The notes under the pieces are model-generated. The model was not told the origin of the DNA, did not search any database, and worked only from the letters and a program-made list of their open reading frames with translations. DNA of 64,000 nucleotides. It comes from Burkholderia sp. USMB20. GTDB lineage: Bacteria > Pseudomonadota > Gammaproteobacteria > Burkholderiales > Burkholderiaceae. The stretch covers positions 310,001 through 374,000 of the forward strand of contig NZ_JTAN02000021.1 in assembly GCF_000949135.2 (NCBI RefSeq). Direction: 5' to 3'. Positions 22,144-37,381 of the stretch are shown here, piece by piece (the stretch's first letter is position 1; each line of letters begins with the position of its first letter). The position numbers and the translations under genes are program-made.

Positions 22144-22219
22144 ACGACGCAACCCCCGAACCCCCATTACCCCGGTGCGCGGCGGGCCGCCGCGCGTTCC
22201 CAAAGAGGAGTCAACCCAC

Positions 22220-23299
22220 ATGTCCGCACGCCCTTACAAGATCGAAGCCCAGCCGCTCGTGCAGCGCTATGCGCGCGGCTGGCACTGCCTCGGCCTCGCC
22301 CGCGACTACAAGGACGGCAAGCCGCACACGCTGAACATCTTCGGCCGCAAGCTCGCCGCGTTCGCCGATTCGACCGGCAGGATCAACATCGTCGACGCGT
22401 ACTGCCCGCACATGGGCGCCGACCTGAGCCTCGGCACGGTCGAAGGCGACAACCTCGTCTGCCCGTTCCACGGCTGGGCGTGGAACGGCGCAGGGCAGTG
22501 CGCGTCGATTCCGTATTGCAAGCGGATTCCGCCGAAGGCGCGCATCGGCGCGTGGCCGACCTGCGAGGAGAACAACCTGCTGTTCGTGTGGAACGACCCG
22601 GAAGGCAATGCGCCGCCGCCGGAAGTCGCGATTCCGAGGCTCGACGTGTGCTTCTCCGACGAATGGTCGGACTGGGTCGTCGACAAGATGGTGATCAACG
22701 CGAACTGCCGCGAACTGGTCGACAACATCTCGGACGTCGCGCACTTCGCGACCGTTCACCATGCGCCGATCGACTATTTCGCGAACCTGTTCGAGGATCA
22801 CAAGGCGACGCAGCTGATGGTCGGCCGCAGCGAGAAGCTCGGCGGTGACAGCCTGACCGCGCTGTCGACGTATTTCGGGCCGGCCGTGCACATCACGCAG
22901 ATGACGGGGCAGAGCGGCGGGCAGCCGATCCATTCGGTGCTGCTGAACTGCCACGTGCCGATCGACATGAACAGTTTCGAGCTGCGCTACGGCGTGATCG
23001 TGAAGAAGGTGGCCGGCCTGAGCGACGCGCAGAACCTGGAGATCGCGAACGCTTACGTGAAGGAAGCGCAGCGCGCGTTCTACGAGGACGTCGACATCTG
23101 GCACAGCAAGACGCGGATCGACAACCCGCTGCTGTGCGAAGGCGACGGGCCGCTGTACCAGATGCGCGACTGGTATTCGCAGTTCTATCTGGACGCGGCC
23201 GACGTGCGGCCGTCGAGCGTCGCGCGCAAGTCGTTCGAGATGAAGATCCGCGACGGCGAGACGCCGCCGGCGCTGCATCACGTGTTCGAACCGCAGTAA
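22220..23299 (+). CDS. kshA: KshA-like Rieske oxygenase, 3-ketosteroid 9-alpha-hydroxylase
   Basis: A 359-residue Rieske non-haem iron oxygenase. The [2Fe-2S] ligands are C62/H64 and C81/H84. The mononuclear iron motif is in LVDNISDVAHFATVHH (D172, H175, H180). The C-terminal IDNPLLCEGDGPLYQMRDWYSQFY closely resembles actinobacterial KshA. It should hydroxylate C9 of a 3-ketosteroid so that ring B opens with ring A aromatisation. No reductase partner (KshB) is encoded in the window, so electrons must come from a protein made elsewhere. A good AAAGAGGAG precedes the ATG. This is the last gene before the apparently foreign block. Confidence 0.88.
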   Translation: MSARPYKIEAQPLVQRYARGWHCLGLARDYKDGKPHTLNIFGRKLAAFADSTGRINIVDAYCPHMGADLSLGTVEGDNLVCPFHGWAWNGAGQCASIPYCKRIPPKARIGAWPTCEENNLLFVWNDPEGNAPPPEVAIPRLDVCFSDEWSDWVVDKMVINANCRELVDNISDVAHFATVHHAPIDYFANLFEDHKATQLMVGRSEKLGGDSLTALSTYFGPAVHITQMTGQSGGQPIHSVLLNCHVPIDMNSFELRYGVIVKKVAGLSDAQNLEIANAYVKEAQRAFYEDVDIWHSKTRIDNPLLCEGDGPLYQMRDWYSQFYLDAADVRPSSVARKSFEMKIRDGETPPALHHVFEPQ

Positions 23300-23345
23300 T
23301 GCAATAGCGCAGTCACGGCGCGGCGTGGCGAGTGGCGGGAAAAAT

Positions 23346-23369
23346 GGGGGGCGTATCGCTACGCCTCCC
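23346..23369 (+). terminator. hairpin after kshA
   Basis: A stem of about ten pairs (GGGGGGCGTA / TACGCCTCCC, including one G-T pair) with a four-base TCGC loop ends 70 bases after the kshA stop. There is no T tract. It may terminate the long catabolic operon before the cspA promoter. Confidence 0.4.
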
Positions 23370-23437
23370 GATTGCCGCGAACGCCCGCCGGACAAGGCGA
23401 CGCGTGCTGCCGCGCGCACGCGTCGCATCGAAAGGAC

Positions 23438-23466
23438 TTGACGGATCGGCTTGCACCGCGTAGTGT
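23438..23466 (+). promoter_or_regulatory. sigma-70-type promoter of cspA
   Basis: TTGACG at 23438-23443 and TAGTGT at 23461-23466 are separated by the ideal 17 bases. Transcription would begin near 23473 and give a 5' leader of about 130 bases, the usual design for cold-shock mRNAs. The leader contains a perfect 7-bp hairpin (23508-23524). Confidence 0.6.
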
Positions 23467-23605
23467 CCGAGACCGAAGTCTTCAAGAAGCTCGATTGCTC
23501 ATCATTGGCCGCACGGCGTGCGGCAGTCGTTGGTCTCTCCCTCTTTGATTCTTTCTGTGCCCGTCACGGGCGCATGTTCATTTCATTCGTATTAAGGAAG
23601 TATTT
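23467..23605 (+). promoter_or_regulatory. cspA: long 5' leader of cspA
   Basis: The roughly 130-base stretch between the predicted start site and the cspA start codon has no open frame. GCCGCAC and GTGCGGC at 23508-23524 form a hairpin with a three-base loop. Long structured leaders of cspA-type mRNAs act as cold-sensing elements in E. coli; the same role is inferred here. The ribosome-binding site AAGGAAG lies at 23594-23600. Confidence 0.5.
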
Positions 23606-23809
23606 GTGGATACCGGTACCGTCAAGTGGTTCAACGAAACCAAGGGCTTTGGTTTCATCTCCCCGGACAACGGCGGCGACGATCTGTTCGCCCATTTCTC
23701 TGAAATCCGCGGCACGGGTTTCAAGACCCTGGCCGAAGGCCAGAAGGTCAGCTACGAAGTGAAGCGTGGCCCGAAGGGTCTGCAAGCGTCGAACATCACG
23801 CCGCAGTAA
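23606..23809 (+). CDS. cspA: cold-shock protein CspA
   Basis: A 67-residue single-domain cold-shock protein that should bind single-stranded RNA and DNA and melt mRNA structure. The RNP1 motif KGFGFI and RNP2-like DLFAHF are both present, and the length is standard. The start is GTG at 23606 with AAGGAAG upstream. It is followed by a strong hairpin and then by an infA paralogue. This housekeeping gene has no obvious link to the steroid genes and marks the left part of the block that separates the two halves of the catabolic locus. Confidence 0.95.
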
Positions 23810-23816
23810 GCCGTAT

Positions 23817-23848
23817 CGGCAGCGGTCGCCAAGCGGCGGCCGCTGCCG
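23817..23848 (+). terminator. strong hairpin just after cspA
   Basis: An almost perfect 14-pair stem (CGGCAGCGG ... CCGCTGCCG, with inner CGCC/GGCG pairs) closes on the four-base loop AAGC and begins eight bases after the cspA stop. There is no T tract, but the position and stability suggest termination or 3'-end protection. Confidence 0.55.
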
Positions 23849-23899
23849 GACGGATCTCGCGCGGAGGCCGGCCCGAGCCGGCGTCCAGCGCGTTCCGAC

Positions 23900-23946
23900 G
23901 CACACGACCGATGCATCGCGGCATTCACGATGCATCGGTCGTGTGC
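23900..23946. repeat. perfect 19-bp inverted repeat
   Basis: Bases 23900-23918 are the exact reverse complement of 23928-23946, with a nine-base spacer. The arm begins GCACACGACCGATG. A dyad of this length is rare by chance. It could be an RNA hairpin at the 3' end of the cspA transcript, a protein-binding site, or a remnant of a small mobile repeat. Confidence 0.75.
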
Positions 23947-23957
23947 TTCCCTCATCC

Positions 23958-23982
23958 ATCGCACGTCCGTACGACGTGCGAT
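23958..23982. repeat. perfect 10-bp inverted repeat
   Basis: ATCGCACGTC at 23958-23967 pairs with GACGTGCGAT at 23973-23982 around a five-base loop. It lies only 11 bases after the 19-bp repeat, so three strong hairpins follow cspA in tandem. Confidence 0.65.
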
Positions 23983-24270
23983 CCAACGCCCTCGCGACGC
24001 GTTCGCCGTGTCGCCAGCGGCCCATGCTGCAACCCGAGTAGACCGTCGCCATGCCGCACGCGGCGCGGTCCCGACTTTGCGCGGTGCCGATCGCATCGCC
24101 GCCACTGACCGCCCGACCGCCGCAACGCGCCGGGCTCCGATTGCAAGGCGGGCCCGTCGCCCGTCTGAACGAATTGATACCCGGCATCCTGCCGGCCGCC
24201 GTCCCGTTGCGGGACACGGCGCCGGTGGCTCGCCGCGGCCGCGGTCACTCACTTGTCTGGAGGAATTGGT

Positions 24271-24534
24271 TTGGCAAAAGAAGAACTGCTGGAACTGGAC
24301 GGAATCGTCGACGAAGTGCTGCCGGACAGCAAATACCGTGTCACGCTGGAAAACGGCGTCGTGGTCGGCGCGTATGCGTCGGGCCGCATGCGCAAGAACC
24401 ACATCCGCATTCTCGCGGGTGACCGTGTGACGCTGGAACTGTCGGTGTACGACCTGACGAAGGGGCGTATCAACTTCCGCCACAAGGACGCGAATTCGCC
24501 GCGTCCGCCGCGCACCGGGCAACCGCGTCGCTAA
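24271..24534 (+). CDS. infA: translation initiation factor IF-1 (paralogue)
   Basis: An 87-residue S1/OB-fold protein starting with [10 protein letters not shown] after the initiator. The core motifs [27 protein letters not shown] and [10 protein letters not shown] are those of IF-1, which binds the ribosomal A site during initiation. The start is TTG at 24271, chosen because GGAGG at 24259-24263 is seven bases upstream; rare starts limit expression. The C-terminal tail ([15 protein letters not shown]) is longer and more basic than in the usual 72-residue ribosomal-operon copy, so this is probably a second infA. Adjacent cspA suggests a shared cold or stress role. Confidence 0.88.
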
Positions 24535-24541
24535 GTAGTAG

Positions 24542-24571
24542 CGATCGGGCGGCGCAACGCCGCACCGATCG
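24542..24571 (+). terminator. hairpin after infA
   Basis: CGATCGG-GCGGCG pairs with CGCCGC-(A)-CCGATCG around a CAA loop: 13 pairs with a single bulged A, starting seven bases after the infA stop. No T tract follows. Confidence 0.5.
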
Positions 24572-25226
24572 AAACCCGTCCGGCCCGGTCATGCGGCCGG
24601 GCACACCGGATGGGCGGCGCAGTTCGCGCCGTTCGCCGGTCTGGTTCGCGGATTCGACATCGGCGAGCCATCTTCGACGAGCGCCGGTCCATAGCGCGCG
24701 CTCCGCTCCCATCCAGTTGTACGCATCCACGTATCGCACCGCGCGTTTCAATTTCGAAACGTGCCGATGTGTCGGCACAGCGGCGTGCTCGGTCCGCTCG
24801 TGACGGTGACGCCACCACGTGGTCGCCGGGCGAGCGTGATGGCGGCAATCAACGCGGGCCGATGCAGGAGAGAGTCAGGCCTGTATCAACGCTGCAACAC
24901 ATTCATTCGCCCACCGGGCCCATCTCCGTATTTTTCAGTTCCAACGCGCCTTGCGCACCCGACCCGCATTGGTGGCACGCCACTTGCAGCGGGGATGTGC
25001 CTGCGGGCGCATGATTTCATGGAAACCGCCGTGGGTGACCGTAACGTGGCGCACGGCGTCTTCGGGGGAAGGCCCGTCGCGTGATCTACGGTTCGGTCGT
25101 GCGTTTCTCCGTCGTGACAAGACGTATTCGAGTTCGCCTTTCCTCGCCGGCCGGCGACGGGCGTGATCGAACTTCACGACGGGAAACGTTACAAGAACAA
25201 CCGGTCGGCGTCTGGGGCCCAGAGTC
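24572..25226. other. non-coding gap
   Basis: About 650 bases without a convincing gene. Several short open frames overlap in different phases with no ribosome-binding sites. A second short GC hairpin (CCCGG / CCGGG, near 24584-24602) follows the infA terminator. Promoter sequences for the next gene could not be picked reliably. Confidence 0.35.
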
Positions 25227-27299
25227 ATGACATTCACGTTCACGCTGGTCGATCTCGCCGGCTCGATTGCGCTGGTGCTGCTCGGGACGCAGATGCTTCA
25301 GACCGGCATGCAGCGCGCGTTCGGCGCTGGCCTGCGGTCGCTGCTGGAACGGGCGCTTTTCGGGCGACTCCCTGCCTTCTTCGGCGGCATGGGCGTAACA
25401 GCGGTGCTGCAGAGCAGTACGACGACCGCGGTCATGACGAGCGAGCTCGCCGCGCAGGGGCGCGTTGGCCTTGTCCCGGCACTGGCCGTCGTGCTCGGCG
25501 CGAACGTGGGTACGACGTTGCTCGTGCAGGTGCTTTCGTTCGAAGTCGGCGCCGTGTCGCCCGCCCTGATCCTCGTTGGCGTGCTGATGTTCCGCAAGGT
25601 ATCGAATACATGCGCTCATGAACTGGGGCGCACGCTCATCGGCCTGGGTCTGTTGCTGCTCGCACTGCATCATCTGCAGGAGTTGATGACGGACTACGAG
25701 GATGCACCGAATCTTCGGATGCTGCTGAGCGACGCATCCACGATACCGCTGATCGACGTCCTGCTGGCGGCCGGCCTGGCCTGGGCCGCCGATTCGAACG
25801 TCGCGATCGTGCTCCTGATCATGTCGCTGTGCGCGCAAAACGTCATTCCCCCCGATACGGCTTTCGCACTGGTGCTGGGTGCCAACCTGGGCGTGGCCAT
25901 CCGCCCGGTGCTGGAGGAGACCGCGACACACGATCCTGCCTCCCGATGCGTGCCGGTCGGCATGCTGCTCATTCTGTCGGCCGGCGTGGTGATTGCGCTT
26001 GTCGCACTGACGCCGATCGGCTGCGTCATGGTCAGGATCGAACCGGACAACGGGCGGGTGGTGGCCGATTTCCATACGCTGTTCAACCTGTCGCTGGCCG
26101 GCCTGTTCCTGCCGCTGCTGGTCCCGTACGCCGACCTGCTGACCCGACTGCTTCCTTCGCTCGTGAAGGTCTCGGCCGCGTCCCGATCGCAGTACGCCGA
26201 TCCGCTCGCGGAACAGGTGCCCGGGATCACGCTCGGCATGGAAGCCCGTGATGTGCTTCCCGTCGTCGACACGCGATACGGGATACGTTCACGAGCCCGT
26301 GCCGCATCGATCGCCCGTGCCGGAGCGTCGGTCACGGAAGTCCGTACCCACGACGACGTTCTCGACAACGTCAGGATTGCGCCCCGGACACCGCTGACGC
26401 GCCCCGATGCCGGACAACTTGCCGGCTACGAGGGACGGCACCGGCATGCAGGCGAGGACCGGCTACAGGAGGACCCGCGTCATCGCATCGAAATCGGGAA
26501 ATCCGCCGGCCATACGGTCGAGCACCTTGGCGCCGACGGCAACGTGCAGACGTACTACCCGGCGAAGTCGCTGTGGCTCACCCTGCAGGACATCCAGGTC
26601 GTCAGGCGCCTGGAGCCGGCCGGCGGGACAACGCATTCGACGCTTTCGACCTATGTCCAGGGGACGGCGAGTCTGGACGACTGCTGTCTGTCGATCATGG
26701 GTGACGTGCAGAACAGCACGCGCACGATACACATCACCTTCGCGGCTCGCGAGATCGGCCAGCCTGAACGGCACGGCCTTCGCGAATTGCAGGACGAACT
26801 GGGCATCACCCATTCGGACGATCCGCTTGGCACGGCACGGCTCGGCTACAACGAGTCCGATGACGAGATGCAGGAACCGGCTCAGTGGTGGGCATGGTGC
26901 GACGTGCCGGCGAGCAGCATGCAGGCACTTGCCGACGGCGTCGAGGCGGGACAGGTCACAGCCGTCAAGGCCGGGCTGTGCCTGCGGGACGTCTACACGT
27001 CGATCCCGCCCGGTGCCGTGCTGGCGGGGGGATTGCGCGTGTTCCTGAGACCCGGCGAGGATGGCAACGCATTGAAGGCGGCGCCGATCGCCAGCGGATA
27101 CGTCGTGTATCTCGCCATCGATCTCCCGAAGGTCAGTCTGCCGGGAGATGGCCGGTCAGCGCGGATGCCGCTGCGCACGGACGACGGGAATCCCGTCGTG
27201 GCGCTGACGGAAAGGCTCGACAAGGTGTCCACCGGCTTGAAATGGCTCGCTGCGCTGGTCGCGATCCTGGTTGTCGTGCTTCTGAGCAAGGGGCGGTGA
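25227..27299 (+). CDS. chimeric protein: Na/Pi-cotransporter-like N-half, unknown C-half
   Basis: A 690-residue protein. Residues about 1-350 are a membrane domain of the Na/Pi-cotransporter family: TAVLQSSTTTAVMTSELA (near residues 57-74) and the inverted-repeat counterpart LVLGANLGVAIRPVLEE (near 218-234), with 8-9 hydrophobic segments. The PhoU-like tail expected after it is absent. Instead, about 330 residues with no recognised domain follow (including QDIQVVRRLEPAGGTTHS and GDVQNSTRTIHITFAARE), ending in one membrane segment, WLAALVAILVVVLLSKG. The second QSS motif is also degenerate (AADSNVAIVLL). This looks like a gene fusion or a truncated transporter joined to another frame. The ribosome-binding site is poor. 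Confidence 0.6.
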   Translation: MTFTFTLVDLAGSIALVLLGTQMLQTGMQRAFGAGLRSLLERALFGRLPAFFGGMGVTAVLQSSTTTAVMTSELAAQGRVGLVPALAVVLGANVGTTLLVQVLSFEVGAVSPALILVGVLMFRKVSNTCAHELGRTLIGLGLLLLALHHLQELMTDYEDAPNLRMLLSDASTIPLIDVLLAAGLAWAADSNVAIVLLIMSLCAQNVIPPDTAFALVLGANLGVAIRPVLEETATHDPASRCVPVGMLLILSAGVVIALVALTPIGCVMVRIEPDNGRVVADFHTLFNLSLAGLFLPLLVPYADLLTRLLPSLVKVSAASRSQYADPLAEQVPGITLGMEARDVLPVVDTRYGIRSRARAASIARAGASVTEVRTHDDVLDNVRIAPRTPLTRPDAGQLAGYEGRHRHAGEDRLQEDPRHRIEIGKSAGHTVEHLGADGNVQTYYPAKSLWLTLQDIQVVRRLEPAGGTTHSTLSTYVQGTASLDDCCLSIMGDVQNSTRTIHITFAAREIGQPERHGLRELQDELGITHSDDPLGTARLGYNESDDEMQEPAQWWAWCDVPASSMQALADGVEAGQVTAVKAGLCLRDVYTSIPPGAVLAGGLRVFLRPGEDGNALKAAPIASGYVVYLAIDLPKVSLPGDGRSARMPLRTDDGNPVVALTERLDKVSTGLKWLAALVAILVVVLLSKGR

Positions 27300-28043
27300 C
27301 AACAAGGAAGCCGGGGGCTGCCGATCGCGTGGCGGCCGATTCGGTTACCGGCTCCAAATCACCGCATCAAGCGTGCGCAATGTTCGAGCGGCCGCGTCTC
27401 GCAGGAAATCTTCGACGAACGGCTCGCACAGTGGTGTGAGAGGGCTGAGGGGGGCTCCTCACCCTACTTGATCGACGGCCATATTGGTTTTCGGGATCAG
27501 GCGTCACCGGTCACGGGGTCAGAACGATCACCATCGCAACATCGGAGCCGACAGCGTCGCGCCTGCGCCAGCGACCCGATCAACGAAATTCGCTCGTTTG
27601 TCGTTCTCGGCACAATGAGGCCACTGTTTGCAATGCTGAATTTCCATGATCGAATCCGGCCGCCGCCGTACTATTGAGGCCTGCGAACGATTCTATTCGG
27701 CCGGGGATTTCGATTTAGTACTGGTACTAGTGTCCAATTTGTTTCAAAGTGGTAATTATCGACTTAATCTCAAAATTAAAATAATCGCCATTCGTTTTCG
27801 TGTTGACGCATTGAGTTTGGAAAAATAGAATTTTTCGTCGACCCGGATGGTTTCGGTTTTGTCTTTGGCCTCGATTCTCTCGCGTGGAATGTCTCAAGTG
27901 ACGATGGCGGATCATTCTGCCTTCGTGGATTTGCTTGGCAAATATTATTTGAGTTTTTGATTTTTAAGATTCGATCGAATTGTTGGATTAGTTTTCAATG
28001 GTTCGATCGTGTCCATTCACATTGAAACGATGGAAGTACACCA
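27300..28043. other. AT-rich non-coding gap upstream of the biosynthesis/export operon
   Basis: About 740 bases without a supported gene. From about 27690 to 28045 the sequence is conspicuously AT-rich compared with everything around it, with runs such as AAAATTAAAATAAT and TTTTTGATTTTTAAG. A 6-bp dyad TAGTAC-TG-GTACTA is at 27716-27729. Short open frames here (for example 27646-27828) have no coding character. The promoter of the downstream operon must lie here; the composition suggests acquired DNA. Confidence 0.5.
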
Positions 28044-28151
28044 ATGGATGAAAGAAAATAGTCTCCGGCGGCAACAGAATCGAATATCTACTTCGGTCCT
28101 TCCGCGCAGAGAAAATGGCTGGGACGTGGTCCGGCGCGCGATGTCGACGTC

Positions 28152-29297
28152 GTGCTGCTGACACATCCGCGCGACCGCGCCGACGTTGCGCGGATGTTCC
28201 CTTGGGCAGACATGCTCGACGGCAACGCGCTCGCAGATTTGCTGGACTGTCTGCAGCCCGTCTACGGCGAGATCATCGAGGCGCAGGACATCAACATTGG
28301 CATCCTGTTTCTGCCGATTCTCGCGGAAGACATGATCGACCCGAGAAAGCGCGCATCCAGCCGCAGCCGCATGGAGAAGGAGGGGTTGACCAAGGCGGCC
28401 GCTATGGGCGCGCGGCATGTCTGTCTGGGTGGACTAACCGGGGCACTGACGAATTACGGACGCCGCATCGAAGCGCGCTCGAAGGAACTCGGTCTCGAAT
28501 TGACGACCGGCCATGCGGTGACGTCGGTCTCGATCGTCCGCCAGTTCGACAAGGCGCTGTCCGAGTCGGGATTGAACGGAGGCGACGCCGTCCTCGCCAT
28601 TCTCGGCGCCGGCAGCGTGGGTGCGGGGGTGGCCAGGCTGCTGGCGCATTCGCCCCGGGCCACTCGGCCCGCGGAATTGATCCTCGTCGACACGCTGCAG
28701 CAGCGGGACAGGGTTCGCGCTCTCGCGGAGGAAGCGGCGGCAGGTTCTCCGATGCGGGTATCGGTCGAGGTGCTTCCGACGCGTTACGCGTTGCCGGACG
28801 ACAGCAGGTGCTATCTCGATGCCAACGTCATTGTCAGCGCGGTCAGCACGCCTTCCATCCTCGATATCGACCTCGTGCGCGCCGGTACGATCCTGCTCGA
28901 TGACAGCCAGCCCTATTGCTGGGATCGCGACGCGGCGTGGGCGCGTGTGCGGGCGCGTGGCGACATCCTCCCGTGCGACGCAGGGCTTGTCGATGTAGGC
29001 GAGATCGCATACCGGTCGTTCTTCCCGTTCGATTTCGCCGACGACGTCGGACACGGCAGCGTCGTTTCATGGTCGTGCCTCGCCGAAGGGTTGTTACGCG
29101 CGAGCCTGCCGCGGCTTGCAAGCAATATCGGCGAGGCCGATACGGCGCAGTTGCTTGCCTACGAGCGCGCATTCGATGACATGAAGTTCGGGATTCCGCC
29201 GCTCCAGTGCGGTAAGCATGTGCTCGATGTCGCCGCTTTCCGCCGCTTTCTAGGCAATGCGGCCGGACCCTCCGGCGCGCGGGGAGGTCGTTCGTGA
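28152..29297 (+). CDS. AAR-like NAD(P)-dependent reductase, possibly 5'-interrupted
   Basis: A Rossmann-fold protein resembling cyanobacterial acyl-ACP reductase and shikimate-dehydrogenase-like enzymes. The visible parts are CLGGLTGALTNYG (residues 91-103), TTGHAVTSVSIV (118-129) and the nucleotide loop LGAGSVGAGV (151-160). Such enzymes reduce acyl thioesters to aldehydes; the substrate here is unknown. The open frame begins at GTG 28152 without a ribosome-binding site. In the same frame, ATG 28044 has GGAAG seven bases upstream but is closed by TAG at 28059 (codon 6), after which coding-like sequence continues (NIYFGPSAQRKWLGRG). So the gene either lost its original start or restarts internally. 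Its stop overlaps the next gene. Confidence 0.65.
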   Translation: MLLTHPRDRADVARMFPWADMLDGNALADLLDCLQPVYGEIIEAQDINIGILFLPILAEDMIDPRKRASSRSRMEKEGLTKAAAMGARHVCLGGLTGALTNYGRRIEARSKELGLELTTGHAVTSVSIVRQFDKALSESGLNGGDAVLAILGAGSVGAGVARLLAHSPRATRPAELILVDTLQQRDRVRALAEEAAAGSPMRVSVEVLPTRYALPDDSRCYLDANVIVSAVSTPSILDIDLVRAGTILLDDSQPYCWDRDAAWARVRARGDILPCDAGLVDVGEIAYRSFFPFDFADDVGHGSVVSWSCLAEGLLRASLPRLASNIGEADTAQLLAYERAFDDMKFGIPPLQCGKHVLDVAAFRRFLGNAAGPSGARGGRS

Positions 29298-30502
29298 AGA
29301 CGATCCCGATCCATCGCGGATGCACCCGCTGCGGGATGCCGTTGCGTTACGACGCGCTGATGAACGGCACCGACGCCGACGAGATCGTGGCATCCGGGCT
29401 GTGCACACACTGTTCGGGCATGCAATCCGACCGGCGCGCGGAGTACGAACCGGATGCGGATCACGAATGGTTGCTCGATTCGATCATTTCCGCCGCCGAC
29501 GGCGAGCGCACGTGGCATCACAAGGCGCTCTCGGTCGCGAAACGCCTGCCGTTCGTTGGCGACGCCAGCCTCGGATCGGCAGCGGCCATGCTCGATTCGA
29601 TTCCGGCGCGTGAGCCACGTTCGACCTATTCCGCGATGGTGCTCTACAGCGGCGGCAAGGATAGTACCTACATGCTGGTTCAACTCGCCGAGAAAGGGGT
29701 GAACGTTTGTGCGTGGATGCTGGATCCCGGCTACCAGTCGCCGCAAACCCTCGAGAGCGCGCGGCGCGTTACCGCGAAGCTTGGTATTCCACTGGTGATC
29801 GAACGTCCCGACAAGGCGCTCACGGATGCGCTGTTCCGATCGGGATTCTCGATCGACGGGAACTCGGATGTCGATCTGCAGAAAGGCGCCATGACGTACG
29901 GCTCCGCGTGCTGGCCGTGCTTTTCGCTGATCGCGGTCAGCGCGAGCGCATTCGCGAATCGCCATCGCATTCCGCTTTGTTTCATCGGCACGCAAAAAGG
30001 GCAGAACCGGTTGAATCTCGAGGGTGCCGGCGTGTTGTCGGCGCGCGCATTGCCGAAAGTGAACGATCTCGTCGCCAAGTTCGTGCAGCCGTTTCGGAAA
30101 GCGATTCCGGACCACGCGGGCTCGCTGGACGCCGATCCCGACGACATCAGGTTTCCGACCGTGCTCGTCCCGTACTACGAACTCGTGCGCAAGCCGGAGC
30201 GGGAGGCCCAGATTGCTCATATCGAGCGATATGACTGGATTCTCCCGAAGAACACGGGCGCGTGCAGTTCGAACTGCATGATCAACGAACTGGGTCGGGC
30301 GGTCATGCGTTCGCGATTCGGTTTCGATCTGTATCAGGTGATCGACGCGAACGAGCGTCGGCTCGGGCACGCCCCGGACCAGGCGGCGTCCGGCTCGCCC
30401 GATCCGGCCATCGTGCGTCTCGGTGCAACGATGCTCGGCTTGAGTGAGCAGGAGGCCGCCGAACTCGGCGTGGCGATTCGAAAGGGCAATCACGATGCGT
30501 AA
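29294..30502 (+). CDS. PP-loop ATPase, N-acetyl-sugar amidotransferase-like
   Basis: A 402-residue protein of the adenine-nucleotide alpha-hydrolase superfamily. The PP-loop SGGKDST spans residues 119-125, preceded by a zinc-ribbon-like set of cysteines C10/C13 and C37/C40. Later GSACWPCFSLI and a C-terminal CSSNCMINELGR add further cysteine pairs, as in WbpG/PseA-type amidotransferases. Members adenylate a carbonyl oxygen and replace it with nitrogen, or in some pathways sulfur. No sugar-nucleotide genes are nearby, so a small-molecule substrate made with the AAR-like enzyme is more likely. The GTG start overlaps the upstream stop, with GGGGAGG just before it. Confidence 0.75.
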   Translation: MKTIPIHRGCTRCGMPLRYDALMNGTDADEIVASGLCTHCSGMQSDRRAEYEPDADHEWLLDSIISAADGERTWHHKALSVAKRLPFVGDASLGSAAAMLDSIPAREPRSTYSAMVLYSGGKDSTYMLVQLAEKGVNVCAWMLDPGYQSPQTLESARRVTAKLGIPLVIERPDKALTDALFRSGFSIDGNSDVDLQKGAMTYGSACWPCFSLIAVSASAFANRHRIPLCFIGTQKGQNRLNLEGAGVLSARALPKVNDLVAKFVQPFRKAIPDHAGSLDADPDDIRFPTVLVPYYELVRKPEREAQIAHIERYDWILPKNTGACSSNCMINELGRAVMRSRFGFDLYQVIDANERRLGHAPDQAASGSPDPAIVRLGATMLGLSEQEAAELGVAIRKGNHDA

Positions 30503-31709
30503 CCTGAGCGAAACCGAAACCTACTCCTTTACCGATCACATCCTGAGCCGCGCCGTCTTCGCGCTGTCGCGCGTCGTGGGTGTGAAGAACATCACTCGGC
30601 CGTTCTGGAATCGCTGGCGGGCGGCGCTGTTCGACCAGAACACGCTGGATCGCTTTCTTGCCGCGATGCACGGTCTCTCGGACTGGCCGACGAAGGGCAT
30701 GGCATTTCTGCAAGGCGAGATTCGGCAGGTCGAGGCAATGCTGCCGCGGATGTCCGACGAGGAGGCCATCGCACACTACCGGCGTCTGTCGTTCCTCGCT
30801 CATCTGGTTCAGTGGGGTTGCCTGCCGCTTTCGGATGCAAAGACGATCGCATATCGGCACTGTCGTGACTTCTACGTCGAGGCAGAACGTCGGGCATTCG
30901 GCGCGCGATTCGCCCGCCTGCGTATCGACTGGCAACACAATCCGATGTGGGCGAACCTGCATTTGCCGGAGATGTCGTTGTCGTTGCGGAAGAGTCCCTT
31001 GGTAGTCATCGTACACGGCATGGACGACGTCAAGGAGGAGCATCTCGCGAGCGAACTGCTGTTTATGGAAGCGGGTTTTGCCGTAATGTGCATCGATGGT
31101 CCCGGGCAAGGCGAATCGTTCCTGATCGACGGCACGACGTGGCCCGAGAACTTCGACGAGGCGATCGTCGCGGCCGTCGACGCGTTGAGCAGCCATCCGC
31201 AGATCGACACCGAAGGCTATGCCATCGCCGGCATCAGTTGGGGCGGCATGTGGGCCTACAAGATCGCGGCGGCCGACGCGCGTGTCAGCGCGATTCTCGA
31301 TCTGGGCGGCCCCGTCGACGCGCGTGACTACAACAAGCTGCCATTCTTCCTGAAAAGCAAGTTTTGCCAGATTCTCGGCATCACGTCGCTCGAGGATGCC
31401 CGGGCGGCGGCGGACCATTTCGCCATCCGCGACGTCAAGATGCTTGGCAAGATCCGCGCCCGCGTCCATATCGTTCATGGCGGACGCGACCCGCTTGTGT
31501 CGGTCGCGGACAAGACATGGCTGCGCGATACGTTGAACGGGCTCGGGCTGACCGACGGCATCAAGCTGACGCTATTCGACGACGGGGACCATTGCTGCAC
31601 GCAATACGTGACGGAAATCCGGCGTGCGGCTGCCGCCGAGTTTCTCGACGCCTACACGCAGCGAACCGCCGCGCGATGCCAGCCGGACCGTCGTTTGCCG
31701 ACCGCGTAA
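30495..31709 (+). CDS. alpha/beta hydrolase, FrsA / C-C hydrolase-like
   Basis: A 404-residue hydrolase with a long helical N-terminal part (about residues 1-160) before the alpha/beta core. The oxyanion region reads VIVHGMDDVKEEH (172-184), then CIDGPGQGES. The nucleophile is S248 in GISWGG, the acid probably D332 (HGGRDPL) and the histidine H366 (DGDHCC). This layout resembles FrsA-like esterases and the pseudooxynicotine-type C-C bond hydrolases. It could release or trim a product of the two upstream enzymes. It overlaps the preceding gene by eight bases and ends 42 bases before the exporter genes. Confidence 0.75.
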   Translation: MRNLSETETYSFTDHILSRAVFALSRVVGVKNITRPFWNRWRAALFDQNTLDRFLAAMHGLSDWPTKGMAFLQGEIRQVEAMLPRMSDEEAIAHYRRLSFLAHLVQWGCLPLSDAKTIAYRHCRDFYVEAERRAFGARFARLRIDWQHNPMWANLHLPEMSLSLRKSPLVVIVHGMDDVKEEHLASELLFMEAGFAVMCIDGPGQGESFLIDGTTWPENFDEAIVAAVDALSSHPQIDTEGYAIAGISWGGMWAYKIAAADARVSAILDLGGPVDARDYNKLPFFLKSKFCQILGITSLEDARAAADHFAIRDVKMLGKIRARVHIVHGGRDPLVSVADKTWLRDTLNGLGLTDGIKLTLFDDGDHCCTQYVTEIRRAAAAEFLDAYTQRTAARCQPDRRLPTA

Positions 31710-31751
31710 TCGGTCGTCGCATACCACCGTGCAACATTCGGTTTCTTCACT

Positions 31752-32717
31752 ATGGAACGCATCACGCTTACGCCTCGGCGGGTCGGGTACGGTTTCGTTT
31801 GCGTGTGCCTCCTGACCACAGGTTGCACCCAGTTGCCGGAAACGTATCACGGTTATATCGAAGGGCAGTTTTCCTATTTGTCGGCGCCGTACTCGGGGAA
31901 CCTGAAGACATTGCGTGCCGCGCGTGGTGACCGTGTCGACGCGGGCGCGGGCGTCTTCGAGATCGATGCGCCCGACCTGGAACAGGCGATCAAGCGCCAG
32001 TATCACCAGTGGCAATCGTCGCGGAACGTGCTCGGCGACCTGGAACAAGGCAAGCGTTCATCGGAAATCGATGCGGTGAAGGCACAGCTCGAACAGGCGC
32101 GGGCGAGCGCGGTTTTTTCGACGCAAAGGCTCGCCCGTGCCGAAGCCGACTACGAAATACGCGCGATTTCACTCGATCAGCTCGAAAGCGAGCGCGCGGC
32201 GGCGCGGGTGGACCAAGCACGAGTACGCGAACTTGCCAGTCAGCTGAAGACGGCGCGGTTGCCGGCACGAGACGGTCAGCTGCGTTCGCAACGACAGAGC
32301 ACCGACGCGCTTCAGGCCGAATACGAACGGCTGCGGACGCAGTACCGGCAACTGTCCGTGCAGGCACCTGGAAAGGGTGTCGTCGTCGATACGTTCTTCA
32401 CGCCGGGCGAGTGGGTCGTCGCGGGCAAACCGGTGGTCAAGATTCTCGTCGATCGCAATACGAAGGTGCGCTTCTTCGTGCCCGGGGTCGCGCTGCCTCA
32501 TCTGCGCGTCGGTCATGTCGTGAAGCTCGCATGCGACGGGTGCGCACGCGGCTATTCGGCAACGATCACACATATCGCATCGGACGCGGAATATACGCCG
32601 CCCGTCATCTACAGCAACGACGCGCGTTCGAAACTGGTGTTTCTCGTCGAGGCGCGACCCGACACCGCCGATGCGCGCGGACTGCATCCGGGCTTGCCGG
32701 TCGAGGTGACGCGATGA
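31752..32717 (+). CDS. HlyD-family periplasmic adaptor lipoprotein
   Basis: A 321-residue membrane-fusion protein. A lipobox LLTTGC places the lipidated cysteine at C25, so the protein is probably anchored in the inner membrane. A first half-lipoyl segment (LSAPYSGNLKTLRAARGDRV) leads into a helical coiled hairpin (about residues 75-195, rich in Gln, Arg and Ala). The return lipoyl segment (SVQAPGKGVVVDTFFTPGEWVVAGKPV) and a beta-barrel domain follow. It should link the ABC transporter encoded next to the outer-membrane channel at 34.8 kb. Its stop overlaps the ATPase start. Confidence 0.85.
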   Translation: MERITLTPRRVGYGFVCVCLLTTGCTQLPETYHGYIEGQFSYLSAPYSGNLKTLRAARGDRVDAGAGVFEIDAPDLEQAIKRQYHQWQSSRNVLGDLEQGKRSSEIDAVKAQLEQARASAVFSTQRLARAEADYEIRAISLDQLESERAAARVDQARVRELASQLKTARLPARDGQLRSQRQSTDALQAEYERLRTQYRQLSVQAPGKGVVVDTFFTPGEWVVAGKPVVKILVDRNTKVRFFVPGVALPHLRVGHVVKLACDGCARGYSATITHIASDAEYTPPVIYSNDARSKLVFLVEARPDTADARGLHPGLPVEVTR

Positions 32718-33640
32718 ACCACGCACCGCCGTTGATCGAGGTGCATCGGCTGAACAAGCATTTCGGCGCGCGGCACGTCGTCAAGAACCTGAGCCTGCAG
32801 GTCGGCCGTGGCGAGATATTCGGCTTTCTCGGTCCGAACGGGAGCGGCAAGACGACCTCGTTGCGCATGATGTGCGGACTACTGACGCCGGACTCCGGCA
32901 GCGGGACCTGCCTCGGATTCGACATCCTGACGCAGCGCCAGGAGATCAAGCGGCGGGTCGGCTACATGACGCAGCGCTTTTCGTACTGGGAGGACCTGAC
33001 GGTGCGGGAGAACCTCGATTTCGTCGCGCGACTGTATGCGATCGACGCGCGAAAGGAACGTGTCGCACGGATCCTCGCCGAAATGGGACTGGAATCGCGA
33101 GCGAACCAACTGGCCGGTTCATTGTCGGGCGGCTGGAAGCAGCGCGTGGCGCTTGCGGCTGCGCTGTTGCAGTCGCCTGAGCTGTTGCTGCTCGACGAGC
33201 CGACAGCCGGCGTCGACCCGGGTGTGCGCAGGGAATTCTGGGAGGAACTGCACCGTCTGGCGGCCCGCGGCATTTCGGTGCTCGTCAGCACGCACTATAT
33301 GGACGAGGCCGAGCGTTGCCACAAGCTCGCCTACATCTCGTACGGGACGCTGCTGGCGCACGGCGAGGCCGGCGAGCTCGTACGGCGGCATGCGCTCCAT
33401 ACCTGGTCGCTGTCCGGGGGAGATCTCGTGCGATTGAACGACCGGCTGAAGGGGCGGCCGGGCGTCGAGCAGGTGATTGCGTTCGGGCGTGTGCTGCACG
33501 TTTCGGGGCGTGACGAGGCCGTGCTTGGCGCGACGCTCGAAATGGTCGGCGGCGATGGCGTCGAGATCCAGAGAGTCGCAACGAATCTGGAACACGTTTT
33601 CCTGCACTTGATGAAGGACGGATCCGGGGAGCCACGCTGA
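32714..33640 (+). CDS. ABC transporter ATP-binding protein
   Basis: A 308-residue ATPase with Walker A GPNGSGKTT (residues 40-48), signature LSGGW (137-141) and Walker B ELLLLDEPTAG (156-166). The signature lacks the usual glutamine (LSGGQ), as in several ABC-2 drug exporters. The D-loop region (GVDPGVRREFW) and switch histidine (VSTHYMDE) are intact. The C-terminal 90 residues resemble the regulatory tail of YbhF/CcmA-like exporter ATPases. ATGA overlap with the adaptor and one base to the permease indicate one operon. It should power export by the ABC-2 permease. Confidence 0.92.
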   Translation: MNHAPPLIEVHRLNKHFGARHVVKNLSLQVGRGEIFGFLGPNGSGKTTSLRMMCGLLTPDSGSGTCLGFDILTQRQEIKRRVGYMTQRFSYWEDLTVRENLDFVARLYAIDARKERVARILAEMGLESRANQLAGSLSGGWKQRVALAAALLQSPELLLLDEPTAGVDPGVRREFWEELHRLAARGISVLVSTHYMDEAERCHKLAYISYGTLLAHGEAGELVRRHALHTWSLSGGDLVRLNDRLKGRPGVEQVIAFGRVLHVSGRDEAVLGATLEMVGGDGVEIQRVATNLEHVFLHLMKDGSGEPR

Positions 33641-33641
33641 C

Positions 33642-34772
33642 ATGACCGGATTTTCGATTTCCCGCTGGTGGAGCATGGTGACGAAGGAATTCCTGCAGAT
33701 CCGCCGCGATCGCGTGACGCTCGGGATGATCGCCGTGTTGCCGATCGTGCAGCTGGCGCTGTTCGGTTTCGCGATCAACAGCGATCCAAGGCATCTTCCG
33801 ACGATCGTGCTTGCCGACGACGCAAGCGAATTCTCGCGATCACTCGTCGCCGGCATGCGCAATACAGGCTATTTCGATATCCAGGGGGGCCTGTTTTCCG
33901 AGCGCGCGGCACGTGACGCACTGCAAAAGGGAAGCGTGCAGTTCGTGGTCAGCGTGCCGCACGACTTCTCGCGGCGGCTGGTGCGCGACGAGCAGCCGGA
34001 AATTCTGGTCGAGGCCGATGCGACGGATCCCGCGGCAACGGGAAATGCGATCGCCGCGTTCAACACGATGACGCGTACGGTGCTGAACAAGGATCTGACG
34101 GGAGCGCTGGCGCCAGCCGCGCCGCCGCAAGCATTCTCTGCCCGTGTGCACAAGATCTACAATCCGGCCGGCATTACGCAGTACAACATCATTCCGGGCC
34201 TGATGGGCGTCATCCTGTCGATGACGATGGTCATGATGACGAGTCTCGCCATCACGCGTGAACGTGAGCGCGGAACGATCGAGAACATCCTCGCGTCACC
34301 GGCAACGTCCATCGAGGTGATCTGCGGAAAGATCGTTCCGTACATCGTGATCGGCATCCTGCAGTGCACGATCATCCTGCTGGCGGCGCGGTTCGTATTC
34401 AGCGTGCCGTTCGAAGGCAATCCGGTGACGGTCTACTGCCTCGCGTCGTTGTTGATCCTCGCGAACCTGATGGTCGGCATCGCCATCTCGTCGGTCGCGC
34501 GAAATCAGTTGCAGGCGATGCAGATGACTTTCTTCTATTTTCTGCCAAGCGTCCTGCTCTCCGGATTCATGTTCCCGTTTGCCGGCATGCCGGGCTGGGC
34601 ACGGATGATCGGCAACGGATTGCCGCTGACCTATTTCAACAGGGCCATTCGCGGCGTCCTCCTGAAGGGCAGCGGATGGAATGAAGTTTGGCCCGATGCC
34701 GCGACGATGGTCGGTTTCACGCTGGTTGCAATGACCGTCGGCCTGCTCGCGTACAGAACCACGCTCGATTGA
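33642..34772 (+). CDS. ABC-2 type permease (YhhJ/YbhS-like)
   Basis: A 376-residue inner-membrane permease: one N-terminal membrane helix (about residues 22-44), a periplasmic domain of some 130 residues, then five C-terminal helices. The ABC-2 pattern TSLAITRERERGTIENILASPATSIEVICGKIVPY lies between the second and third helices. It forms the export channel with the ATPase of the preceding gene, one base upstream. The subgroup (YbhS/YhhJ) works with an HlyD adaptor and a TolC-type channel, both encoded here. Transported substrate unknown. Confidence 0.9.
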   Translation: MTGFSISRWWSMVTKEFLQIRRDRVTLGMIAVLPIVQLALFGFAINSDPRHLPTIVLADDASEFSRSLVAGMRNTGYFDIQGGLFSERAARDALQKGSVQFVVSVPHDFSRRLVRDEQPEILVEADATDPAATGNAIAAFNTMTRTVLNKDLTGALAPAAPPQAFSARVHKIYNPAGITQYNIIPGLMGVILSMTMVMMTSLAITRERERGTIENILASPATSIEVICGKIVPYIVIGILQCTIILLAARFVFSVPFEGNPVTVYCLASLLILANLMVGIAISSVARNQLQAMQMTFFYFLPSVLLSGFMFPFAGMPGWARMIGNGLPLTYFNRAIRGVLLKGSGWNEVWPDAATMVGFTLVAMTVGLLAYRTTLD

Positions 34773-34778
34773 ACGACG

Positions 34779-36248
34779 ATGGCACAACGAACACATCCCG
34801 GCCGCCGTGCTTGCCGCGCAATTGCGCTCCTGCCGATCGCGGTCGCCATCGTCCTGGGGCAAGGGTGCCGTCATCCCGCGTTCGTCTCTCGTTCCGCGAG
34901 CGATCTGGCATTGCCTTCCACCTTCATGGGAATGAGCGCCGGATCGGCCGAACGCGACGGCGCTTCCGCGCCGGCCGCACGCGATCCGCGCTGGTGGCGG
35001 CGCTTTGGCTCGCCGGCGCTGGATACACTCGTCGAGCAGGCGATGCAGGATAGTCCGTCCGTGCGGAGTGCGGAGTCGCGGCTGGTCGAAGCCACGAAGT
35101 ATGTCGAGGGCCAGCGCGGAGCAAGTCGCTATCCGCAGGTCGATTTCGGCGCGTCGGCAAAAAAGGAGCAGTTGAATACCGCTGCGGCCGGCCTGCCGAT
35201 GATTCCGAACCCGTCGCCATTCATGTTGTACAACACGAACGTGAGCGTTCGATACGACTTCGATCTCTTCGGTGCGCAGCGCCATCGGATCGCCGCGAAA
35301 CGATACGAAGCGGCGCTGAGAAAGCATCAGGCAGACGCGGCACGCCTGACGCTGGCCGGCAATATCGCGGCCGCGGCGGTCCGGGAAGGGCGGCTGCGCG
35401 ACGAAATCGAATTGAACGAAGGCGTGTTGCAGAACCGGCAGGCCGTCCGGCAGACGCAGCACGATCGCCATGCAATCGGCAGCGTGGCTTATCGGGAAAC
35501 GATCGACGGCGATTCGGACGTCGATCGAATCGAGGGGGAACTGGCGACCTTGCGCGCGCAACTGCAGCAGGTCCGGTTTCAACTCGCGGTCTATGCGGGT
35601 GTTCCATCGCCCGAATCGCTGCCGCGGTTTCGTCTGGACGATTTGCAGTTGCCACGGGACCTGCCGTCGACGGTTCCGTCGGAGTTCGTGCGTCAACGTC
35701 CCGACATCCTCGCAGCGGAGGCGAGCCTGCACATTGCCGGTGAACTGGCCGGTGTTGCCACGGCCAATCTTTACCCGCGGATCGAACTGGGCGCGAGCAT
35801 CGGGGCGTCGCCGCTGGTGCTCGGCCAGTTGTTCGCGGGCGGCACGACGATCTGGAATATCGGTGCCCAGCTAAGCGCACCGGTTTTTCACGGTGGAGAA
35901 TTGCGTGCGTCGCGGGACGCGGCGTATGCCGCATACGATGCGACGTTTGAAGACTACCGGCAGGTGGTGCTCAGCGGATTGCAGAGCGTGGCCGATGCGA
36001 TGACCGAAATCGATCGCGATACGACGGCGCTGCAGGCCCGTAGCGCCGTCGCTCGCCGCCAGCAGACCGTTCTCGAGATGACGCGGCGTCAGTTCGAGAA
36101 CGGCAGCTCGGATCGGCTTCGCGTGCTACGTGCCGAGTATGCGTACGATCTGACGCGGCTGGAGTTGATTCGCCTGCGCGCGGCCAGGATGGCCAGTACG
36201 GTTTCGTTTTTTGCCGCCGTCGGTGGCGACGCGTATCCTGCGCGTTGA
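34779..36248 (+). CDS. TolC/NodT-family outer-membrane efflux lipoprotein
   Basis: A 489-residue outer-membrane factor. The signal peptide ends in a lipobox LGQGC with C30 as the lipidated residue, as in NodT/OprM-type channels. The repeated structure is visible: a first helical half with DPRWWRRFGSPALDTLVEQAM, the conserved RYDFDLFGAQRHRIAAKRYEAA, then SLHIAGELAGVATANLYPRIELGASIG and a second helical half. It completes the four-gene exporter and starts seven bases after the permease. It ends the plus-strand block, converging on hsaF. Confidence 0.9.
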   Translation: MAQRTHPGRRACRAIALLPIAVAIVLGQGCRHPAFVSRSASDLALPSTFMGMSAGSAERDGASAPAARDPRWWRRFGSPALDTLVEQAMQDSPSVRSAESRLVEATKYVEGQRGASRYPQVDFGASAKKEQLNTAAAGLPMIPNPSPFMLYNTNVSVRYDFDLFGAQRHRIAAKRYEAALRKHQADAARLTLAGNIAAAAVREGRLRDEIELNEGVLQNRQAVRQTQHDRHAIGSVAYRETIDGDSDVDRIEGELATLRAQLQQVRFQLAVYAGVPSPESLPRFRLDDLQLPRDLPSTVPSEFVRQRPDILAAEASLHIAGELAGVATANLYPRIELGASIGASPLVLGQLFAGGTTIWNIGAQLSAPVFHGGELRASRDAAYAAYDATFEDYRQVVLSGLQSVADAMTEIDRDTTALQARSAVARRQQTVLEMTRRQFENGSSDRLRVLRAEYAYDLTRLELIRLRAARMASTVSFFAAVGGDAYPAR

Positions 36249-36270
36249 CGGCAGGCATCTATGCGGAAGA

Positions 36271-36293
36271 CGGAGCCGGGATCGCCGCGGCTC
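36271..36293. terminator. hairpin between convergent genes
   Basis: GGAGCCG and CGGCTCC form a 7-bp stem with a nine-base loop in the 101-base gap between the outer-membrane channel gene (+) and hsaF (-). It could serve both strands. No T tract is obvious. Confidence 0.4.
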
Positions 36294-36349
36294 CGGCCGG
36301 AGACTGACCTGCGATGCGTCCATGACATGGAAGGCAGCGCAGATCCCCG

Positions 36350-37381
36350 TTATGCCGCCACCGCCCGTGCCCGCGCCATCGTCAGCGCCGCATCCTCGAT
36401 CATGTCCTCCTGCCCGCCGACGAGCCGCTGCCGACCGAGTTCGACGAGGATGTCGCGCGCCGGAATCCCGTACTTCGCTTCCGCGCGCTTCGCGAACAGC
36501 AGGAACGACGAGTAGACGCCCGCGTAACCGAGCGTCAGCGCATCGCGGTCAAGGCGGATCGGCGCGTCCATGATCGGCACGACGAGATCCTCGGCGACGT
36601 CGGAAATCGCGAACACGTCGACGCCGGTCTCGATTCCCATCCGGTCACACACCGCGACGAACACTTCCATCGGCGTATTGCCGGCGCCCGCGCCGAGGCC
36701 GGCGGCAGCCGCGTCGATCCGGTTCGCGCCGGCGGCGACCGCCGCGACCGAGTTCGCGACGCCCATCGCGAGGTTGTGATGGCCGTGGAAGCCGAGTTCC
36801 GTCTCCGGCTTCAGCGCGGCGCGCACCTGGCCAATCCGCGCGGTCACGTCGTCGGGCAGCATGTGGCCGGCCGAATCGGTGATGTAGATGCAGTTCGCGC
36901 CGTACGACTCCATCAGCTTCGCCTGCACGACGAGCTGCTCGGGCGACGACATGTGCGCCATCATCAGGAATCCGACGGTATCGAGGCCGAGCGTGCGCGC
37001 AAGGCCGATATGCTGTTCCGAAACGTCGGCTTCGGTGCAGTGCGTCGCGACGCGGATCGTGCCGACGCCGAGCTCGTGCGCCATGCGCAGGTGCTCGACG
37101 GTGCCGATGCCGGGCAGCAGCAGCGCCGACACCTTCGCCTGCTTCAGCTCCGGAATCACGGCGCTCAGGTACGCCTCGTCGGTATGCGCGGGAAAACCGT
37201 AGTTGACCGAAGCGCCGCCGAGCCCGTCGCCGTGCGTAACTTCGATCAGCGGCACGCCGGCCGCATCGAGCCCGCGCGCGATGCTGCGCATCTGGTCGAG
37301 CGTGATCTGGTGACGCTTCGGGTGCATCCCGTCGCGCAACGACATGTCGTGGACGGTGATCTTCTTGCCTGCAAGTGACAT
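36350..37381 (-). CDS. hsaF: 4-hydroxy-2-oxovalerate aldolase (HsaF/MhpE family)
   Basis: A 343-residue DRE-TIM-type aldolase. The N-terminal metal- and substrate-binding motif [14 protein letters not shown] (near residues 12-25) is clear. Further family stretches are [26 protein letters not shown] and [20 protein letters not shown], whose histidines bind the divalent metal. It splits 4-hydroxy-2-oxo acids to pyruvate and an aldehyde, which is channelled to the dehydrogenase encoded 16 bases upstream. In this setting the substrate would come from steroid ring A/B cleavage (4-hydroxy-2-oxohexanoate). Generic phenol-type meta pathways use the same enzyme, so the symbol rests on context. Confidence 0.88.

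What the first reader, a model, noticed from the sequence alone, without database searches (positions are those of the whole stretch)
28044..36248. Unassigned small biosynthesis/export operon
Three tightly coupled enzyme genes (AAR-like thioester reductase, PP-loop amidotransferase-like ATPase, C-C-hydrolase-like alpha/beta hydrolase) are followed directly by a complete ABC exporter with lipoprotein adaptor and outer-membrane channel. No carrier protein, ketosynthase or NRPS is present, and I know of no described pathway with this set. Reduction of an acyl thioester, nitrogen or sulfur insertion by the PP-loop enzyme and hydrolytic release could make a small exported metabolite or signal.
Basis: partly seen in the sequence, partly recalled or inferred. 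Interest (0 to 1): 0.75.

Follow-up and report, generated by a model that had tools for sequence, protein, structure and literature searches.

The report
Portable three-enzyme small-molecule biosynthesis cassette
A rare set of three enzymes, found side by side in distantly related bacteria and coupled here to an export pump, probably converts a fatty-acid-like precursor into an unknown sulfur- or nitrogen-containing small molecule.

Summary
The gene set is real, but the window's first gene has an in-frame TAG at codon 6. The trio (TAD/AAR-family thioester-releasing enzyme, PP-loop ATPase, alpha/beta hydrolase) recurs in the same order in two phyla: six Burkholderiaceae loci with the exporter, and Frankia and two Streptomyces without it. 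A Streptomyces plasmid keeps the first two genes and a hydrolase remnant. Three Streptomyces loci add an ACP and ketosynthase II, two also ketosynthase III and a fatty-acyl-AMP ligase, so the substrate is probably a carrier-bound fatty-acyl-type thioester. Enzyme 1 best matches the "TAD" domain of the carmabin NRPS, catalytic Cys included. Enzyme 2 has the fold and zinc motif of N-acetyl sugar amidotransferases plus a CXXC-C-like cysteine set that 19 of 19 sampled amidotransferases lack as a set. This favours sulfur insertion over amidation, though the fold list does not separate the two. The segment is accessory: a near-empty site exists in a relative. Two related clusters carry an extra NAD synthetase, apparently acquired separately, and a third an extra FabI, possibly for self-resistance. 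Product and chemistry remain inferred. New variant of a known kind.

The parts
28062..29297 (+). TAD/AAR-family thioester-releasing NAD(H) enzyme (upstream ATG 28044, in-frame TAG 28059-28061). Cys339 (codon at 29076, numbering from 28062) is the predicted nucleophile
29294..30502 (+). NASAT-fold PP-loop ATPase with Zn-type tetracysteine (C10, C13, C37, C40), SGGKDS (119-124), CWPC (C206, C209) and CSSNC (C324, C328)
   Evidence: TIGR03573 only 32.5 bits against cut-off 203.2
30495..31709 (+). alpha/beta hydrolase of the DHPON-hydrolase/AntI group; invariant Ser265, Asp349, His383 (numbering from the GTG at 30444)
31752..32717 (+). HlyD-type periplasmic adaptor, apparent lipoprotein (Cys after hydrophobic leader, judged by eye)
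32714..33640 (+). ABC transporter ATPase (DrrA/NodI-like)
33642..34772 (+). ABC-2 type permease
34779..36248 (+). NodT-type outer-membrane efflux channel
   Evidence: TIGR01845 297.4 bits against cut-off 210.05
24642..36353 (.). variable segment: its two flanks lie 330 bp apart in G001 and about 1.9 kb apart in G005; part of it (24962-27328) is also found in G002, which has no trio

Best explanation
It is an accessory small-molecule biosynthesis cassette. Enzyme 1 takes an acyl group from an acyl carrier protein on its cysteine and releases it with NAD(H) (as aldehyde, or as amide if it works like an amide-forming terminal domain). Enzyme 2, an ATP-dependent PP-loop enzyme, activates a C-O group of the released or carrier-bound acyl product as an adenylate and replaces the oxygen, more likely with sulfur from an iron-sulfur-type tri-cysteine site than with ammonia. 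Enzyme 3, an alpha/beta hydrolase, trims or edits an acyl or C-C bond. In Burkholderiaceae the product is pumped out by the ABC-2/HlyD/NodT exporter of the same operon and the acyl-ACP is presumably borrowed from primary metabolism; in Streptomyces a dedicated ACP and ketosynthases supply it. Shown: gene content, order, recurrence, predicted folds, conserved residues, accessory status. Inferred: substrate, order of steps, sulfur rather than nitrogen, product, export of that product.
Against: No biochemistry, no product. The nearest fold of enzyme 2 is an amidotransferase; below it, sulfur- and nitrogen-handling PP-loop enzymes (TtuA, LarE, TilS, NAD synthetase, ArtA) are practically tied, so the list does not decide. 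The third cysteine did not align with TtcA's, and hhalign covered only the PP-loop stretch. C206/C209/C324/C328 could be a second zinc site. Only one of five models of enzyme 2 was above pLDDT 56, and coordinates could not be read. The hydrolase has decayed in L012, so it is not always kept. The window's first gene is interrupted.
Confidence: 0.6

Rival explanations
1. Nitrogen version: the PP-loop enzyme is an amidotransferase or nitrile/amidine-forming enzyme like NASAT, QueC or ArtA, using ammonia; the product is an amidine, amide or nitrile of a fatty acid.
Against: The 19 NASATs lack the CWPC...C set. No NadE-like gene in the Burkholderia or Frankia stretches; other glutaminase types were not searched for. 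The NadE copies look like complete NAD synthetases, and the S. niger remnant has lost the ICED cysteine.
Confidence: 0.3
2. The NadE and FabI copies in related clusters are ordinary neighbours or biosynthetic helpers, without relation to the product's target.
For: Neither is found in the window, Burkholderia, Frankia or NBC_00470 stretches (the FabI query met only a 31% SDR in L001); the four Burkholderia genomes have one NadE each. FabI fits a fatty-acid-type pathway with KASII and KASIII, and one (G451) of the nine Streptomyces genomes without the trio also has two FabI-like genes.
Against: Both are extra copies in their genomes. NadE seems to have been recruited twice: the two cluster copies as one clade are rejected, p-AU 0.0046 (tested after the tree was seen, and with a long-branch warning). 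In S. cyaneus an ATG for NadE lies 15 bp after the KASII stop.
Confidence: 0.5
3. The window's own copy is a decaying gene set: with the first gene interrupted it makes no product, and only the exporter may still matter.
For: TAG at codon 6 and no ATG/GTG/TTG in frame until codon 37.
Against: The rest of the gene is open and 90% identical to B. aenigmatica; the two other enzymes are open throughout; the sequence may be in error.
Confidence: 0.35

Closest known systems
TAD terminal domain of the carmabin NRPS (PDB 9e4s, 9e4u, 9e4x, 9e50, 9e56) and AAR (6jzu, 6jzy)
   Different: Free-standing, 22-24% identical to TAD, far below the AAR curated score (26.8 against 449.7); reaction unknown. What TAD does was not seen in any call, only PDB titles
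N-acetyl sugar amidotransferases (WbuX/WbpG, LpNASAT 8wex)
   Different: 32.5 bits against cut-off 203.2; additional CWPC and CSSNC; no sugar or LPS genes recognised around it
[4Fe-4S] PP-loop sulfur transferases (TtcA, TtuA, NcsA, LarE)
   Different: N-terminal zinc-type cysteines, no tRNA or Ni-pincer context; third Cys not aligned
2,6-dihydroxypseudooxynicotine hydrolase / AntI
   Same: Among the best solved relatives of enzyme 3; DHPON hydrolases also in plasmids
   Different: About 30% identity over half the protein; no known substrate
PigE/TamH thioester reductase domains
   Same: Acyl thioester reductases of the AAR group with a catalytic Cys in PigE (PMC8341465, passages)
   Different: Fused to an aminotransferase, absent here
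ABC-2 / HlyD / NodT tripartite exporters
   Same: Complete set
   Different: Joined to the trio only in Burkholderiaceae; a homologue in P. sprentiae stands with a TetR gene and no trio within the 24.6 kb shown

Membership tests
N-acetyl sugar amidotransferase (TIGR03573) | Score over the curated cut-off | tested here: not met
   32.5 bits against 203.2
N-acetyl sugar amidotransferase (TIGR03573) | Tetracysteine CXXC-Xn-[GN]XCXXC and SGGXDS | tested here: met
   cysteines and PP-loop in 8 of 8 trio sequences; [GN] before the second CXXC checked in the window protein (GLCTHC) only; motif as given in PMC10607449
N-acetyl sugar amidotransferase (TIGR03573) | Amidation of a sugar N-acetyl group | not testable with these tools
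   no assay
[4Fe-4S] PP-loop sulfur transferase | PP-loop plus CXXC | tested here: met
   CXXC aligned with TtcA in the multiple alignment and in 2 of 3 pairwise alignments
[4Fe-4S] PP-loop sulfur transferase | Third cluster-ligating Cys at the same site | tested here: inconclusive
   C324 and C328 invariant in the trio, C328 also in the NRPS domain, but not aligned with TtcA's
[4Fe-4S] PP-loop sulfur transferase | Binds a cluster and transfers sulfur | not testable with these tools
   needs protein
Acyl-ACP reductase AAR (TIGR04058) | Curated cut-off | tested here: not met
   26.8 against 449.7 bits (protein from 28152)
TAD/AAR structural group | Fold and nucleophilic Cys | tested here: met
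TAD/AAR structural group | Accepts acyl from a carrier protein | not testable with these tools
   suggested by ACP and KASII in L006, L007, L012
DHPON hydrolase / AntI hydrolases | Ser-Asp-His triad | tested here: inconclusive
   S265, D349, H383 invariant in 6 of 6; not mapped on a structure
ABC-2/HlyD/NodT tripartite exporter | Adaptor, ATPase, permease and OM channel in one operon | tested here: met
   (operon judged by spacing)
A characterised biosynthetic cluster (MIBiG/antiSMASH class) | Matching gene set in a curated database | not tested
   no such database on hand; full-text searches listed none

The most novel reading that the evidence does not exclude
The cassette makes a fatty primary thioamide: the TAD-like enzyme releases acyl-ACP as a primary amide, the CXXC-C PP-loop enzyme turns it into a thioamide, and the product acts on NAD-dependent enoyl-ACP reductase or NAD metabolism, as the drug ethionamide does after activation. 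The extra FabI of S. niger and the separately acquired second NAD synthetases of S. cyaneus and P. bryophila would be self-resistance genes, and the pump the protection in Burkholderia. That carmabin ends in a carboxamide and that ethionamide works through an NAD adduct on InhA are recalled, not from a call.
Probability: 0.08. Interest if true: 0.9.

Novelty: new variant of a known kind. Interest (0 to 1): 0.6.

Why it matters
If right, it defines a compact biosynthesis module that crosses phyla, with an undescribed combination of carrier release and PP-loop atom replacement outside tRNA, cofactor and LPS metabolism; a related PP-loop domain inside an NRPS suggests a wider tailoring reaction. 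The extra NadE and FabI copies offer a testable guess at the target. A clean set of three enzymes, with a natural variant that brings its own ACP, can be tested directly.

Tried and rejected
Defence system: no PADLOC match for the five proteins given, of seven. Phage cargo: only generic PHROGs hits for enzymes 2 and 3 of the three given; no relative of enzyme 2 in viral contigs. Common metabolic operon: rejected as rare: 0 of 349 Pseudomonadota (the tool warns that an empty answer without a known positive shows nothing), 4 of 101 relatives, 2 of 295 Streptomyces and 1 of 296 Actinomycetota, these three being loci already known. Those are samples, cut at E 1e-20, where at most 5-6 candidates per genome were scored; the scan finds close relatives only. 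NadE as a source of ammonia for enzyme 2: weakened, since both copies keep the synthetase domain and 161 and 187 of 214 positions invariant in six housekeeping copies, and the S. niger remnant has lost catalytic residues. Proof of the third cluster Cys by alignment with E. coli TtcA failed. A first NASAT comparison read minus-strand loci wrongly and was discarded; one search replaces it (19 of the 20 rows listed; L062, with a stop inside, was dropped; the matches to the trio profile are weak, 3.5-29 bits, so those columns are uncertain). Literature on TAD: searches (listings) and passages sought in three papers gave nothing on it.
Full report
Observation. The window holds seven same-strand genes between 28044 and 36248, with spacing from overlaps to 42 bp. 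Family searches give no Pfam hit for the first enzyme, a PP-loop ATPase, an alpha/beta hydrolase, and a complete ABC-2/HlyD/NodT exporter. G+C of trio and exporter is 63%, against 67% for the window. The open frame runs from 28062, and its next ATG/GTG/TTG is GTG 28152, inside an early strand of the model. Whether this copy is functional is open.

Recurrence. A scan of genome contigs (84,980 species by the tool's description) with the PP-loop protein, which finds close relatives only, gave seven loci: B. aenigmatica (L001), B. ambifaria (L003), Burkholderia sp. MS389 (L004), Paraburkholderia bryophila (L002), Frankia sp. CIT1 (L005), Streptomyces niger (L006), S. cyaneus (L007). Further: G025 (L027) and a Streptomyces sp. 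NBC_00470 plasmid (L012). With the window that makes ten loci. The first enzyme sits directly before the PP-loop gene in 10 of 10; an intact hydrolase follows in 9 of 10, and in L012 only a 45-residue remnant is left. Across phyla the three proteins are 42-49% identical. The exporter is present in 6 of 6 Burkholderiaceae; it is not found in the stretches L005-L007 by tblastn, and none is annotated in the 41 kb of L012, whose gene table is incomplete. The set is rare: 4 of 101 relatives, 0 of 349 Pseudomonadota, 2 of 295 Streptomyces, 1 of 296 Actinomycetota, with the limits told under Tried and rejected.

Accessory status. The window's 20001-24641 and 36354 onwards are 94-96% identical to G001, which has no trio and where they lie 330 bp apart; in G005 they are about 1.9 kb apart. 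The 11.7 kb between is thus a variable segment; part of it (24962-27328) is also present in G002 without the trio.

Substrate. In L006 and L007 the trio is followed by an ACP and a KASII gene and flanked by KASIII and FAAL genes; L012 has the ACP and KASII. In the Frankia stretch none of these was found. This points to a fatty-acid-type acyl-ACP; in Burkholderiaceae and Frankia it would be borrowed from primary metabolism (inference).

Enzyme 3 is nearest, among solved structures, to DHPON hydrolase and AntI; Ser265, Asp349 and His383 are invariant in 6 of 6. A second, FrsA-like hydrolase is shared by L002, L006 and L007, 41-44% identical across phyla.

Possible self-resistance. P. bryophila has a NAD synthetase gene right after the exporter genes and S. 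cyaneus one between KASII and FAAL; both pass the NCBIfam NAD+ synthase cut-off (678 and 658 against 479), keep the catalytic motifs looked at and are second copies (the other S. cyaneus copy is only 36% identical). The two cluster copies as one clade are rejected (p-AU 0.0046; tested after the tree was seen), so NadE was probably recruited twice; long branches call for caution. S. niger has at that place a decayed NadE glutaminase domain and an extra FabI; of the 12 genomes searched, one other, G451, also has two FabI-like genes. The four Burkholderia genomes tested have one NadE each, none in the cluster, so this feature is not general.

Verdict. A real, rare, horizontally distributed biosynthesis cassette with known superfamilies in a combination for which full-text searches listed no paper. 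Its product is unknown. New variant of a known kind; interest 0.6.

Noticed in passing
window 28059-28061: In-frame TAG at codon 6 of the first trio gene, while four relatives have a sense codon there.
   Followed up: partly
L013 5292-13340 (Roseovarius pelagicus plasmid): NRPS whose first adenylation domain appears interrupted by a PP-loop domain related to enzyme 2, with zinc-type cysteines and a CXXC; near it are genes annotated as acyl-CoA dehydrogenase, phosphopantetheine-binding protein and adenylation domain.
   Followed up: partly
L002 9661-11442; L007 13946-15685; L006 about 14790-15700: Second NAD synthetase genes in two trio clusters, apparently of separate origin, and a decayed glutaminase remnant in a third.
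   Followed up: yes
L006 13912-14748: Extra FabI/InhA-type enoyl-ACP reductase in the S. niger cluster, about 60% identical to the other Streptomyces copies found.
   Followed up: partly
window 25227-27299: 690-aa frame with a Na/Pi-cotransporter N-terminal part and no other Pfam match, within the variable segment.
   Followed up: no
L012 21182-21319: 45-residue remnant of the trio hydrolase on a Streptomyces plasmid.
   Followed up: yes
L023 (S. cyaneus, G448:C2): A second TAD/AAR-like match inside an open frame of 4053 aa, perhaps a megasynthase; not examined further.
   Followed up: no
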